From assembly GCF_024506395.1 (NCBI RefSeq), contig NZ_JANIBO010000001.1:124001-188000 (forward strand): a stretch of DNA of 64,000 nucleotides, given 5' to 3'. The notes under the pieces were generated by a model. The model worked only from the letters and a program-made list of their open reading frames with translations. It made no database searches and had not been told where the DNA came from. The position numbers were made by a program, and so were the translations under genes. This document shows positions 49,418 through 53,628 of the stretch, in pieces. The first letter of the stretch is position 1. Each line of letters starts with the position of its first letter. This stretch comes from Cetobacterium sp. NK01. Its GTDB lineage: Bacteria; Fusobacteriota; Fusobacteriia; Fusobacteriales; Fusobacteriaceae.

Positions 49418-50839
49418 TTATAATATTGGTGCCATCAATTTTGATATAGATTCAAGCACTCTATCTTTTTTACCTCTATTTTTATAATCCTCTAAAGTTA
49501 CTTTTTTAGAGTTTAATATATCATTTTCAATTCTATTTTCTAGTTCAGTTATATTGTTTCCTAAGATTAAAAGACTTATTTCAAAATTTTGATACATACT
49601 TCTATAATCAAAATTTGCTGTTCCTATAAAAGCAATCTCCCCATCTATAACAACTAATTTACTATGTATAAATCCATACTTATACTTATATATCTCAGCT
49701 CCAAGTTCTATTAACTCTCCATAAAAATACTGATTAGCCCAATATACAAAAGCATGATCACCTACGCTTGGAATAATAATTTTAACTTTTATGCCTGATA
49801 CTAAAGCTACTTTTAAAGCATCTAAAATCGGTTCATCAGGTATAAAATAAGGTGTTTCTATATGAATACTTTTTTCTGCTTTTACGATAAGGCTCAAAAA
49901 CGTATCTTTTATAGTATGAAATTCATAGTTTGGCCCTGAACTTACAACTTGAATCGGAGTTACATTGTGATCATTCTTATCAAAAGTTATTGTTTGAAAT
50001 ATATCTGTGGTATCCTTTTTTAAAAATTTCCAACTTCTTTCAAACTCATGAAGATAATCTATTATAGCTTCTCCTTTTAAAGAGAATCCTATATCTTGCC
50101 AATTTCCTAAACGTCCTTTTCCTACATAGTCTTTACCTATATTTAATCCGCCAGAAAAACATATTTTATTATCGATAAGAGCAATTTTTCTATGATCTCT
50201 ATAGTTTGCTCTTAGATTTCCAACTTTTACAAAAGGAAAGTACGAAGGAAAGAAAACTTCAAACATTATTCCTGATTCTCTCAATTGTTTAATTCTTTTT
50301 TTTGAGACTCCTCTTGTTCCTGCCCCATCAACAATTATTTTTATTTCTATCCCTTCTTTAACTTTTTCTAAAAGTAAATCATATATAGGTTTTCCAACCT
50401 CGTCATCATCAAATATATAATACTCCATATATATAGATTTTTTTGAATTTTTTATAGCCAGAGTTAAACTTTCAAAATAATACTTAGCTTCAGGATAAAA
50501 TGTAAAACTATTGTTATGTGTCATCTTACCTAAAAGAACACCATCTAAATATCTGCTTAATCCTATCCATTTTTTAATACTAACCATAGATTTTTTATTT
50601 AAATTTTTTAAATAATCATGACTATTTTTAAGGTAATATTTTGATAAAGCTCTACGTTTTTTAAAGCTAATACCAAAAAATAGATACATTATAAATCCAA
50701 AATAAGATGTTAACAATAATATTGTTATCCAAAACAACGTAAAAACAGGTCTTCTTCTTTCAAAAAATATAACGATACATGCAAATACAATATTAACAAA
50801 ACCTAAGTAGTCCTTTAATGCTATGAATATCTCTTTCAT
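49418..50839 (-). CDS. cls: Cardiolipin synthase
   Basis: 473 residues. Two N-terminal membrane helices (about 12-30, 38-58) and two HxKxxxxD motifs: HRKIALIDNKICFSGG (about residue 218) and HSKLVVIDGEIAFIGTANFD (about 395). This is the bacterial phospholipase-D type cardiolipin synthase that condenses two phosphatidylglycerols at the inner membrane. It heads the downstream series mog-addB-addA; a terminator separates it from the preceding alarmone-synthetase-like gene. Confidence 0.94.
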   Translation of the reverse strand: MKEIFIALKDYLGFVNIVFACIVIFFERRRPVFTLFWITILLLTSYFGFIMYLFFGISFKKRRALSKYYLKNSHDYLKNLNKKSMVSIKKWIGLSRYLDGVLLGKMTHNNSFTFYPEAKYYFESLTLAIKNSKKSIYMEYYIFDDDEVGKPIYDLLLEKVKEGIEIKIIVDGAGTRGVSKKRIKQLRESGIMFEVFFPSYFPFVKVGNLRANYRDHRKIALIDNKICFSGGLNIGKDYVGKGRLGNWQDIGFSLKGEAIIDYLHEFERSWKFLKKDTTDIFQTITFDKNDHNVTPIQVVSSGPNYEFHTIKDTFLSLIVKAEKSIHIETPYFIPDEPILDALKVALVSGIKVKIIIPSVGDHAFVYWANQYFYGELIELGAEIYKYKYGFIHSKLVVIDGEIAFIGTANFDYRSMYQNFEISLLILGNNITELENRIENDILNSKKVTLEDYKNRGKKDRVLESISKLMAPIL

Positions 50840-50864: not shown

Positions 50865-50892
50865 AAAAAGAAGAGTCGAAACTCTTCTTTTT
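50865..50892 (-). terminator. Terminator of the SIR2-like/alarmone-synthetase unit
   Basis: A 12-bp stem AAAAAGAAGAGT / ACTCTTCTTTTT closed by CGAA; T-run on the - strand directly after the stop at 50891. Confidence 0.88.
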
Positions 50893-51679
50893 ATTTGAAT
50901 TTTAAATCCAACTCTCTAAAATTATCTTCTAAACCTTTTCCATTAGAAAACTCTTTTTTTATTTTTTTTATAAACATCCCCATTTCATCAGCACTTCCAA
51001 CTATTCTATTAAATATACCTAAGTATTCAGTTATAATTGGATTATCTACATCGTAAGGATATCTCATTAAATGATCAATCTCACTCCAAGCTTCTTCAAA
51101 AACTGTTCTTACTTGAATTTCAACAAGTACTTCATCTTGCTTTGTAACTGGAACTCCTATTAAGTAGTGTATCGATCTATAACCGTGATCTCTAACTATA
51201 ATCTCACAATCTAAATCTTGAATTGTATTTTTGAGATCTTGGATATTATAATCCCCTCGTCTAATATTTATTTGAGGAGTTTCTTTTGTATCCCATAATT
51301 TTGTTATTTCACAATGAATTCCACGCCAGTCATCTTTAAATAAATGTAGCACACGTATTCCAATAAGATCAGTTATAATCTCCTTGTAATTCTCTACATT
51401 TATTCCACGATCTGCGTATTTTCTACCTTTTCTTATGATTTTTTCAATAAGATGTGTTGCTCTTTTTACTCTTCTTCTAACTGAGTGAACTCCTTCACTA
51501 TCAATTAATTTAGATACTATGTGTTCAGCTTCTTTTTCTAAATAAGGAACTAATTTTATATAGTCAGCATAAATTTTCATAAGCTCATCCCAGTTAAGAC
51601 CAGTTGAGTGAAAATACTCCTCTGTTATACAGAAAGCTTTAAAAAATTCTTCTCTGTCTATTGTATTATCTAATATCAA
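50891..51679 (-). CDS. RelA/SpoT-domain (p)ppGpp synthetase-like protein, small form
   Basis: 262 residues from a TTG at 51679, for which AAAGAGG is 8 nt upstream; a GTG at 51688 directly abuts that site and is less likely. The synthetase fold is clear: ITDLIGIRVLHLFKDDW, RDHGYRSIHYLIGVP and VEIQVRTVFEEAWSEIDHLM with the catalytic Glu. There is no HD hydrolase, TGS or ACT domain, so it is of small-alarmone-synthetase size. It is the last gene of a unit with the SIR2-like and frameshift ORFs. Whether it makes (p)ppGpp or modifies RNA like toxic SAS enzymes is open. Confidence 0.85.
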   Translation of the reverse strand: MILDNTIDREEFFKAFCITEEYFHSTGLNWDELMKIYADYIKLVPYLEKEAEHIVSKLIDSEGVHSVRRRVKRATHLIEKIIRKGRKYADRGINVENYKEIITDLIGIRVLHLFKDDWRGIHCEITKLWDTKETPQINIRRGDYNIQDLKNTIQDLDCEIIVRDHGYRSIHYLIGVPVTKQDEVLVEIQVRTVFEEAWSEIDHLMRYPYDVDNPIITEYLGIFNRIVGSADEMGMFIKKIKKEFSNGKGLEDNFRELDLKFK

Positions 51680-51695
51680 ATTAAACACCTCTTTA

Positions 51696-52472
51696 TTATT
51701 TTCTAGGTATCTTCTCTAATGAAATTTCACAAGTTTTTCTATAAGCTACTGCTTCAGTAGTTTTTATCTCTCTTTTTTCTACTGATGTAAGTGTAACTAT
51801 TTTCTCTCTAATATTAAAGTCATTTCCTTTAATAATGTGAATTCTTTCAACAGATATTCTATCTCCTTCAATTAACTGAACTTTATCTAAGTTACATCTA
51901 AAGTTTACCCAACTTTGAAGTGTTGGAGTTTTATCAATAAGATTTAATAAAGCAAGAGAATACAAAGAGTTTTCTTCTTGTAATAACTTCTCTTTTTTTA
52001 TTTCCTCTAATCCTAAAATCTCTTTTTCTAATAAATCTAACTTCATAATTTCTATTCTATTCTCAAAAGATACCTTCCCTGTAACCAATTTTCCAGTTAG
52101 CTGGATAAGATGTCCCATAAAGATCTCTTTTAAAAATCTTATATTGAACATAAATCTTTTGATATTACTGCATTGATATATCTTGTAATAGTAATTATTT
52201 ATTACTGTATTAAAAGATCCATCCTCTTTTAAATCAATCTCTAAACCTAATTTAAACTCTCTGTTTTTTAGTTCTAAATATTTTTTTCTGTTTATTTCAA
52301 CTATTCTACTATGACAGTCTTTTATATGTAGTTCCTCAACTTTTAAATCGGTAACCCCAAAAGTTTTTATTAGGTTTTGATTTTTCATATCTTTTATCGT
52401 AGAAAATTCAATTGGTAACCTATCCAATTTTAAAGAGCTATACCTTATTTCTAAGGCACTCTCTAGAATCAT
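51696..52472 (-). CDS. Unrecognised C-terminal domain, probably translated by -1 frameshift from the SIR2-like gene
   Basis: 258 residues from the first in-frame ATG, but the frame is open further upstream to beyond 52676 and codes an acidic, gene-like linker (E/D/T-rich, for example TTEILEIRTESEENTDIST). Between the slippery site and 52472 there is no ATG, GTG or TTG codon in frame, and the ATG at 52472 lacks a ribosome site, unlike nearly all genes here. The domain appears beta-rich with no recognised family. Most likely it is the C-terminal part of a 596-residue fusion (51696-53485). A true frame-disrupting mutation or sequence error is the alternative. Confidence 0.7.
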   Translation of the reverse strand: MILESALEIRYSSLKLDRLPIEFSTIKDMKNQNLIKTFGVTDLKVEELHIKDCHSRIVEINRKKYLELKNREFKLGLEIDLKEDGSFNTVINNYYYKIYQCSNIKRFMFNIRFLKEIFMGHLIQLTGKLVTGKVSFENRIEIMKLDLLEKEILGLEEIKKEKLLQEENSLYSLALLNLIDKTPTLQSWVNFRCNLDKVQLIEGDRISVERIHIIKGNDFNIREKIVTLTSVEKREIKTTEAVAYRKTCEISLEKIPRK

Positions 52473-52657
52473 AAAATCTTCATTCTTAACATCTAATACT
52501 TTTGGATCTCTTATTTCATCTTGTTTCTCTTCTTCTGTTGAAATATCTGTATTTTCTTCAGATTCTGTTCTAATCTCTAAAATCTCTGTAGTCTCTTCAT
52601 TAACTACTTCCTCTTTTAAAAATACTTCATCTACTATTTCATCAGAATTTTCTGAAG

Positions 52658-53485
52658 TTACCGAAAGAGCTTTTTTCCAATATATGCCTCTTTTAATTCA
52701 GATTCATCCATTGAGTTTGAACATAAATATCCTTTTAGTTCTTTAAAAAACTCCTCTTCACTATGCGGCAGAAGTTTTACTCCTAGCTCATTTAATCTTT
52801 CAATTGTTTTTGTTTTTAAAACATTTGAATTACTTACAGCGTAAATAACATCTTTAGTATTTACATCTGTTAATACAGCCTCTAGCATATCTATAAAATC
52901 TGAGTTATTTAAGTCTAATCCTAAAATTAGCGTTGGATAATTTTCTATATCCTCTTTAATACCTCTAAAAAAGTTTTTGTAGAAATCTAAAACTTTTAAC
53001 TTTCTAAAGTCTTGGATAGAAACAAAAATCTTCTCGTGTCTATTCACATCCCCAAGGATTTTGTAATGCTTAACCTCTCCATTCGATGCCATTGCCAACT
53101 CTTCATCTGTCGGTAGTATTTTAACTACTTTGTTTGAATTTATATCATCTAAAACTATATCATAATCTGTTGAAAAAACAGCATTAATCTTATTACTTTC
53201 AGAGAAAATATTTAGTACCTCTGCAGTTTCTCTGTTTGTTTCGTACAAATTTTTGATTTTTTTCAATAATGAACTTCTACTGCTAACAACTCCATCTAAG
53301 TAAACTTGGCTAACTTGAAATAAAGAATTTTCATCTCTTATATAACCTTTTATATTTTCTTTCATATCTTTCATTAACAGTTTTGCTAACTCTCTTCTTG
53401 TTGGATATCCAGCGTTTCTTACTAAAAAATCACCTAAAAAAAGATTAATTTTATCTGTATCATTAAATTTATTGAAAAAACTCAT
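52658..53485 (-). CDS. SIR2-like domain protein with degenerate active site
   Basis: 275 residues. The plan fits SIR2_2-type domains: NLFLGDFLVRNAGYPT near the N-terminus in place of GAG-x-S, FSTDYDIVLDD (about 104-114) in place of TTNYD, YKILGDVN (141-148) in place of K-x-HGD, PTLILGLDLNNSDF (184-197) in place of the lfiGyS-D strand, and a C-terminal YAVSNSN/LGVKLLPHSEEEF. The catalytic Asn is Asp107 and the catalytic His is Leu144, so NAD hydrolysis is doubtful. The gene ends GGA AAA AAG CTC TTT CGG TAA, with a -1 slippery site. A SIR2 fold is my inference from motif order. Confidence 0.75.
   Translation of the reverse strand: MSFFNKFNDTDKINLFLGDFLVRNAGYPTRRELAKLLMKDMKENIKGYIRDENSLFQVSQVYLDGVVSSRSSLLKKIKNLYETNRETAEVLNIFSESNKINAVFSTDYDIVLDDINSNKVVKILPTDEELAMASNGEVKHYKILGDVNRHEKIFVSIQDFRKLKVLDFYKNFFRGIKEDIENYPTLILGLDLNNSDFIDMLEAVLTDVNTKDVIYAVSNSNVLKTKTIERLNELGVKLLPHSEEEFFKELKGYLCSNSMDESELKEAYIGKKLFR
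52670..52692 (-). promoter_or_regulatory. Putative programmed -1 ribosomal frameshift site (A AAA AAG with upstream SD)
   Basis: On the - strand the heptamer A AAA AAG (52676-52670) lies in the zero frame of the SIR2-like gene, four codons before its TAA. AAGAGG (52692-52687) ends exactly 10 nt upstream, the spacing and type of the dnaX stimulator in E. coli. Slippage by -1 joins AAA AAA GCT CTT TCG GTA to the open downstream frame. A weak hairpin (TCAGA/TCTGA) starts about 14 nt downstream. Confidence 0.65.
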
Positions 53486-53531
53486 AGTAACACCTCTCTT
53501 TCTTTAAAAAATAAAACACTTTGGCAATATA

Positions 53532-53560
53532 AGTATATCTTAATTTTATCTATTTAACAA
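53532..53560 (-). promoter_or_regulatory. Promoter of the SIR2-like unit
   Basis: On the - strand TTGTTA (53560-53555), a 17-bp spacer and TATACT (53537-53532), 46 bp before the start codon and just after the mnmA terminator. Confidence 0.6.
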
Positions 53561-53579: not shown

Positions 53580-53617
53580 TAAAAAAAAGCCTGTAAATAA
53601 TAGTTTATTACTTACAG
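53580..53617 (-). terminator. Terminator of mnmA
   Basis: Arms CCTGTAA (53589-53595) and TTACAGG (53611-53617) with further AT pairs inside; a run of T follows on the - strand. It separates mnmA from the SIR2-like unit. Confidence 0.75.
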
Positions 53618-53628
53618 GTCATAAAATT

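What the first reader, a model, noticed from the sequence alone, without database searches (positions are those of the whole stretch)
50865..53560. Self-contained unit: SIR2-like/frameshift fusion plus small alarmone-synthetase-like enzyme
Seen: a TTGTTA-17-TATACT promoter, the SIR2-like gene, the frameshift ORF, a RelA/SpoT-type synthetase without hydrolase or regulatory domains, and a strong terminator at 50865, isolated from mnmA by another terminator. Known: SIR2 domains and small alarmone synthetases both appear as effectors in bacterial defence and toxin-antitoxin systems. Inference: the unit may be an undescribed stress, toxin or defence module. The housekeeping surroundings could equally mean a conserved core operon.
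Basis: partly seen in the sequence, partly recalled or inferred. Interest (0 to 1): 0.75.

Follow-up and report, generated by a model that had tools for sequence, protein, structure and literature searches.

The report
Frameshifted dead-sirtuin gene beside alarmone synthetase
A gene that databases split in two (a sirtuin-like part and a part of unknown fold) is, in this Cetobacterium-type bacterium and across its family, most likely one gene read through by a programmed ribosome slip just upstream of a stress-signal (alarmone) synthetase; the sirtuin part has lost its catalytic residues, so this looks like a conserved control unit rather than a phage-defence toxin.

Summary
The unit is real: a SIR2-like ORF (53485-52658, minus strand), a 324-codon region open only in the -1 frame (52670-51699), and a small RelA/SpoT-type synthetase (51679-50891) 16 nt further on. 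The SIR2 ORF carries A_AAA_AAG three sense codons before its stop. In 32 genomes (8 genera, own included) with the SIR2 and C-terminal (CT) parts in separate frames, CT is always in the -1 frame; 28 have an in-frame slippery heptamer in the overlap. Fifteen relatives carry one fused ORF, one joined at exactly this A-run with the same residues. All tRNA-Lys genes found are UUU. Best reading: one gene with programmed -1 frameshifting, giving 275-aa and 596-aa proteins.

The defence/NADase idea is not supported: the SIR2 domain folds like ThsA/DSR2 but lacks the catalytic His in all 50 readable homologues and the GxGxS loop; the gene is near-universal in one family (CT in 50 of 61 genomes, 0 of 37 other Fusobacteriota), with no viral relative found. 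The synthetase keeps its catalytic residues. SIR2-CT and synthetase are neighbours in 36 genomes but apart in others. CT function is unknown; a regulatory role is inferred. No protein product was tested.

The parts
53532..53560 (-). promoter-like TTGTTA-17-TATACT upstream of the SIR2-like gene
   Evidence: such matches are as frequent in shuffles, so weak
52658..53485 (-). SIR2-like ORF, 275 aa plus TAA stop; domain with degenerate catalytic site (LGDFL for GxGxS, STDYD for TxNYD, YKILGD for K-x-HG)
   Evidence: Pfam SIR2_2 E 5e-10; fold Z about 20-22 to ThsA/DSR2 for the homologue L042; motifs in homologues
52687..52691 (-). Shine-Dalgarno-like AGAGG, 10 nt 5' of the slip site; GAG codon invariant in the 9 genus genomes compared
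   Evidence: stimulatory role inferred from known bacterial -1 frameshift signals (PMC4066793)
52670..52676 (-). slip site A_AAA_AAG in frame with the SIR2 ORF, three sense codons before the 0-frame stop
   Evidence: the 5 tRNA-Lys genes found in the own genome are all UUU
51696..52670 (-). CT region in the -1 frame: 324 codons plus stop; linker of about 51 low-confidence residues, then a conserved alpha/beta domain of about 270 aa
   Evidence: AlphaFold mean pLDDT 80.8; no Pfam or PDB sequence relative
50891..51679 (-). small alarmone (RelA/SpoT-type) synthetase, 262 aa, TTG start, 16 nt after the CT stop; SYNTH residues kept
   Evidence: Pfam RelA_SpoT E 1.2e-20; closest solved structure 6ewz, GTP pyrophosphokinase, E 7e-13; ortholog in 52 of 61 family genomes
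50865..50892 (-). hairpin/T-run terminator after the synthetase (palindromic; the scan lists it on the + strand)
53590..53618 (-). terminator of the upstream mnmA gene, separating it from the unit

Best explanation
One transcription unit encodes (i) a single SIR2-CT gene expressed through -1 programmed frameshifting and (ii) a small alarmone synthetase. Ribosomes translate the SIR2 part; those that do not shift stop three sense codons after A_AAA_AAG and release a 275-aa SIR2-only protein, while a fraction slip back one base and make a 596-aa SIR2-CT protein (sequence evidence strong; products not seen). The SIR2 domain is an inactive relative of ThsA/DSR2-type NADases, so its role should be binding or assembly, not NAD+ cleavage (inferred from lost residues). 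Because the CT stop lies 16 nt from the synthetase start (11-27 nt in most neighbours, overlapping in genus g7), ribosomes that shift should help synthetase translation, so slip frequency would set both the long:short ratio and synthetase output (inferred). The most likely job is conserved stress or nucleotide-state regulation in Fusobacteriaceae, with CT as the specific partner or ligand domain (inferred, weak).
For: Frame: CT is in the -1 frame in 32 of 32 complete split loci from 8 genera, never +1; 28 of 32 have an in-frame A_AAA_AAG or A_AAA_AAA heptamer in the overlap, mostly 16 nt before the stop. Fused product: 15 relatives carry SIR2 and CT in one ORF; L042 (g10) is fused at an A10G run and reads ALSVTS, the residues the window reads in its -1 frame. 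The tree needs about 5 changes between split and fused, 4 forced by well-supported branches. Window control: -1 frame open 324 codons against a median of 5 at 17 such sites. Reduced synonymous variation in the last 12 codons (1 of 8 against 66% overall; P 0.003, relatedness uncorrected), and a conserved CGG Arg codon that is otherwise almost unused nearby. All tRNA-Lys genes found are UUU, the situation in which A_AAA_AAG is highly shift-prone in E. coli (PMC5009743). Strong hairpins 3' of the site in g5, g8 and part of g13 (z about -2 to -5). No consistent start with an SD-like site in the CT frame: 6 of 32. SIR2 catalytic His absent in 50 of 50 readable homologues. CT-synthetase gaps.
Against: No protein or ribosome-profiling data. 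In the window's own genus there is no significant 3' hairpin (z -0.03 for the window). g5 and g8 lack a heptamer, so the frame change there needs another explanation. Runs of 9-10 A in g14, g4, L116, L117 and L042 could act by RNA polymerase slippage instead. Nothing links SIR2-CT to synthetase activity except position, and the two genes are separated in several genera.
Confidence: 0.77

Rival explanations
1. Two separate genes: a SIR2-like protein, and CT translated from its own start (or by termination-reinitiation), as databases annotate it (SIR2 family protein plus hypothetical protein in Ilyobacter).
For: Ilyobacter annotation; a GTG or ATG overlaps the SIR2 stop in some g13, g5 and g7 genomes, and 6 of 32 loci have an SD-like site before a start codon in the linker.
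Against: The CT frame is open back into the SIR2 overlap in all 32 loci although an independent start would not require it; three loci have no start codon at all before the domain; starts are not conserved in position; 15 natural fusions exist.
Confidence: 0.1
2. Frame change by RNA polymerase slippage on the A-run rather than by the ribosome (same fused product, other mechanism).
For: A9-A10 runs in g14, g4, L116, L117 and L042; bacterial slippage on runs of 9 A or T is documented (PMC5009743).
Against: Only A6 in nine of ten window-genus genomes with a complete locus; in most lineages the run keeps the exact A_AAA_AAG codon phase.
Confidence: 0.12
3. Defence or toxin-antitoxin module: SIR2 NADase effector and/or toxic alarmone synthetase controlled by SIR2-CT.
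For: SIR2 fold closest to ThsA/DSR2; L042 hits the ThsA PADLOC model at 3e-14; a diverged 427-aa synthetase homologue sits in a prophage-like locus (L062) and PHROG 2211 matches the window synthetase.
Against: SIR2 catalytic residues lost in all homologues; near-universal in one family and in conserved housekeeping neighbourhoods; no relatives in viral contigs; synthetase nearest to RelP/RelQ-type structures; the pair is not obligate.
Confidence: 0.1
4. Random pseudogene or sequencing error in the SIR2 gene.
For: The frame is broken by common annotation standards.
Against: The same break and frame occur in 32 genomes, with CT conserved across 8 genera.
Confidence: 0.01

Closest known systems
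dnaX-type -1 programmed ribosomal frameshifting (A_AAA_AAG)
   Same: Same heptamer, upstream SD-like site at 10 nt, only tRNA-Lys UUU found; hairpin downstream in several lineages; long and short product from one gene
   Different: Here the shift makes the long product and the 0-frame stop the short one (in E. coli dnaX the shift makes the short one); no clear hairpin in the window's genus; this gene family is not named in the recoding papers I could read
ThsA / DSR2 SIR2-domain NADases (Thoeris, DSR)
   Same: SIR2 fold: VIA Z 22.1 (rmsd 2.9, 251 aligned) to 7uxt and 20.2 to 8wyc, for homologue L042
   Different: Catalytic His and GxGxS loop absent in every homologue; CT in place of the SLOG or DSR2 C-terminal parts; near-universal family gene rather than patchy defence gene
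Small alarmone synthetases RelP/RelQ; fpRel group noted for Fusobacteria (PMC3153485)
   Same: SYNTH domain only; conserved motifs align with RelP, including GYRS-H and EIQ-RT
   Different: NCBIfam YjbM score 41 against cut-off 320, so not that equivalog; operon partner SIR2-CT not reported in the papers found
toxSAS toxin-antitoxin / CapRel
   Same: SYNTH-domain enzyme next to another gene
   Different: Not patchy; no small antitoxin gene; the neighbour is a large pseudo-sirtuin protein and is absent in some genomes that keep the synthetase

Membership tests
-1 programmed ribosomal frameshift gene (dnaX type) | In-frame X_XXY_YYZ slippery heptamer within the frame overlap | tested here: met
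   A_AAA_AAG at 52676-52670; 28 of 32 split loci
-1 programmed ribosomal frameshift gene (dnaX type) | -1 frame encodes a conserved extension | tested here: met
   CT profile matches 50 of 61 family genomes, always -1 when split
-1 programmed ribosomal frameshift gene (dnaX type) | Sole tRNA-Lys UUU decoding AAG | tested here: met
   All 5 tRNA-Lys genes found are UUU; no CUU among the tRNA genes scanned; assembly 98% complete
-1 programmed ribosomal frameshift gene (dnaX type) | Stimulatory 3' structure | tested here: inconclusive
   z about 0 in the window, strong in g5, g8 and part of g13; sites against controls P 0.007, relatedness uncorrected
-1 programmed ribosomal frameshift gene (dnaX type) | Two protein products made | not testable with these tools
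   Needs expression data
SIR2 NADase defence effector | SIR2 fold | tested here: met
SIR2 NADase defence effector | Catalytic His (K-x-HG) and GxGxS NAD loop | tested here: not met
   His replaced in 50 of 50 readable homologues; loop degenerate
SIR2 NADase defence effector | Patchy presence, link to defence or mobile loci | tested here: not met
   CT in 50 of 61 family genomes, 0 of 37 others in the phylum, none found in viral contigs
Small alarmone synthetase | SYNTH (RelA_SpoT) domain without HD, TGS or ACT | tested here: met
Small alarmone synthetase | Catalytic residues present | tested here: met
   Alignment to RelP 6ewz
Small alarmone synthetase | Makes (p)ppGpp | not testable with these tools
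   Needs assay
fpRel subgroup | Falls in the fpRel clade of Atkinson 2011 | not tested
   Reference sequences not at hand; the paper lists fpRel in Fusobacteria
toxSAS toxin-antitoxin | Toxic synthetase neutralised by adjacent antitoxin | not testable with these tools
   Distribution argues against; no assay

The most novel reading that the evidence does not exclude
A catalytically dead sirtuin made in two lengths by programmed frameshifting acts as a sensor or scaffold that controls the neighbouring alarmone synthetase, with frameshift frequency itself (sensitive to Lys-tRNA charging or ribosome load) gating alarmone output: a recoding-based input to the stringent response.
Probability: 0.15. 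Interest if true: 0.85.

Novelty: new variant of a known kind. Interest (0 to 1): 0.6.

Why it matters
Well-documented chromosomal -1 frameshift genes in bacteria are few outside mobile elements (dnaX, copA and cso2 are discussed in PMC5009743). This would add one kept through much of a bacterial family, hidden because databases call it two genes, and it offers natural comparisons (split, fused, heptamer lost) for studying how recoding signals evolve. It also shows that a SIR2 domain of the defence-NADase type is not by itself evidence for a defence gene, and it gives a testable link between translation state and an alarmone synthetase in Fusobacteriaceae.

Tried and rejected
CT function by homology: no convincing Pfam, PHROG, PADLOC or PDB sequence relative; Foldseek best E 0.013 at probability 0.09 and VIA best Z 3.2, i.e. 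no informative match; a missing match does not prove a new fold. Viral-contig scans for CT and the synthetase found no relatives. Papers joining Fusobacterium or SIR2 with programmed frameshifting: none held; the GeneTack survey text names no SIR2 family, but its supplements were not open to me. Considered and rejected: pseudogene or error (32 genomes agree); NADase effector (dead site); independent CT start. The 3' hairpin cannot be claimed for the window itself. Promoter match not above chance. One genome-contig scan returned only four Cetobacterium MAGs because its pattern was narrow. The own dnaX gene was located but not analysed for a shift.

Full report
What is there. On the minus strand between two terminator hairpins (53618-53590 after mnmA; 50865-50892) lie a SIR2-like ORF (53485..52658, 275 aa), a region open only in the -1 frame relative to it (from 52670, stop at 51698..51696, 324 codons), and a small RelA/SpoT-type synthetase (51679..50891, TTG start behind AAGAGG) 16 nt downstream. 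Pfam: SIR2_2 E 5e-10; RelA_SpoT E 1.2e-20; nothing for CT (all 20 CT rows). The promoter TTGTTA-17-TATACT exists, but the number of such matches equals shuffle expectation.

Frameshift. The SIR2 ORF ends GGA AAA AAG CTC TTT CGG TAA: a dnaX-type A_AAA_AAG in the zero frame, with AGAGG 10 nt upstream. A -1 slip continues as ALSVTSENS... into CT, giving 272 + 324 = 596 aa. Control: of 17 in-frame A_AAA_AAG sites in open frames of at least 100 codons in the window, this one leads into a -1 frame open for 324 codons; the next is 31, the median 5. I collected relatives by whole-genome search, fetched the loci and located SIR2 and CT by profile. Among complete loci, 32 are split (own genome included) and 15 are fused in one ORF (in 14 both profiles match the same ORF; in L133 the fused reading rests on the 693-aa open frame and on the SIR2 profile running into the CT part). 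In all 32 split loci CT is in the -1 frame, and 28 have an in-frame A_AAA_AAG or A_AAA_AAA in the overlap. Two g10 species show the link directly: G020 is split at A7G, G031 is fused at A10G at the same place, reading KKKALSVTS. The tree of SIR2 domains needs about 5 split/fused changes, 4 forced by well-supported branches, and split loci occur on both sides of the midpoint root.

Signal quality. Within nine genus genomes the last 12 SIR2 codons vary synonymously at 1 of 8 testable columns, against 66% overall (P 0.003, relatedness not corrected), and the conserved CGG Arg codon is otherwise nearly unused in the neighbouring genes. All five tRNA-Lys genes found have anticodon UUU, the condition under which A_AAA_AAG is very shift-prone in E. 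coli (PMC5009743). Three-prime hairpins are strong in g5, g8 and part of g13 (z -2 to -5) but absent as a significant feature in the window's genus (window z -0.03); sites against controls overall P 0.007, relatedness uncorrected. In g5 and g8 (and in Fusobacterium vincentii, L203, which resembles g8) no heptamer exists although the split, frame and a strong hairpin persist; that part is unexplained. CT has no conserved own start: 6 of 32 loci have a start with an SD-like motif in the linker and three have no start codon at all. RNA polymerase slippage remains possible where the run is A9-A10, less so at A6.

SIR2 domain. A model of the naturally fused homologue L042 (mean pLDDT 86, pTM 0.50) matches ThsA (7uxt Z 22.1, rmsd 2.9, 251 aligned) and DSR2 (8wyc Z 20.2) over residues 1-261; the sequence profile reaches ThsA 8wc0 at E 0.0008. 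In that alignment the HG motif of ThsA (YKMHGD) lines up with YKILGD. Across 50 readable homologues the position is never His, and the GxGxS loop is replaced by forms such as LGDFL, LGEE or TENF. By established SIR2 enzymology this should be catalytically dead (inference; not assayed).

CT. AlphaFold gives a confident mostly-beta domain after a disordered linker. No PDB match is informative.

Synthetase. RelP (6ewz) is the nearest solved sequence, E 7e-13, and the SYNTH motifs are conserved in the alignment. The genome also has a long Rel (726 aa ORF) and a third, 305-aa RSH synthetase. Atkinson et al. list Rel plus fpRel for Fusobacteria (PMC3153485); I could not test fpRel membership.

Distribution. 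In 61 family genomes the synthetase ortholog is in 52 (E <= 1e-100), the SIR2 profile matches 52 and the CT profile 50; CT is in none of the other 37 Fusobacteriota genomes. Synthetase and CT are neighbours in 36 genomes from g1, g2, g5, g7, g8, g10 and g13, with gaps of 11-27 nt in most and overlaps in g7. Ilyobacter carries them apart, SIR2-CT next to lon and annotated as 'SIR2 family protein' plus 'hypothetical protein'. No relative was found in viral contigs.

How it most likely works. Shown by sequence: one conserved gene in two frames; shift site; dead SIR2 site; intact synthetase; tight spacing. Inferred: ribosomal -1 shift producing two proteins; coupling of CT translation to synthetase translation; a regulatory role. 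A precedent for a slippage event altering expression of the next gene is Shigella spa13/spa32 (described in PMC5009743). I put about 0.77 on the frameshift explanation, about 0.35 on a functional link to the synthetase, and 0.1 on a defence role.

Verdict. Observation confirmed; interpretation shifted from a defence module to a family-conserved recoded pseudo-sirtuin gene with a frequently adjacent alarmone synthetase.

Noticed in passing
L043, L044, L203 (Fusobacterium sensu stricto-like clade): SIR2/CT split in the -1 frame without any slippery heptamer, but with a shared GGTGATG...TATGCC-stop motif and a strong hairpin directly after the stop (L203 GGTGAGGAC-N7-GTCCTCACC). How CT is reached there is unexplained.
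   Followed up: partly
L062 (G033:C4:34151-34876): 427-aa diverged homologue of the synthetase (41% identity) with a long C-terminal extension, downstream of an XRE/LexA-like repressor: looks prophage-borne. PHROG 2211 also matches the window synthetase (E 7e-54).
   Followed up: no
L129-L131 (g11): SIR2 and CT joined in single ORFs of 943-1154 aa with a long middle region; these genomes lack the small synthetase ortholog.
   Followed up: no
L147 (G000:C2:579326): Third RelA/SpoT synthetase in the own genome, 305 aa with a C-terminal extension.
   Followed up: no
window 49418-50839 and relatives: A phospholipase-D/cardiolipin-synthase-like gene is the neighbour of the unit in most genera that keep it, on changing sides and strands.
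   Followed up: no
G061 contigs C42 and C65 (L110, L109): Assembly breaks fall at the shift motif/linker region, so this species could not be classed as split or fused.
   Followed up: no
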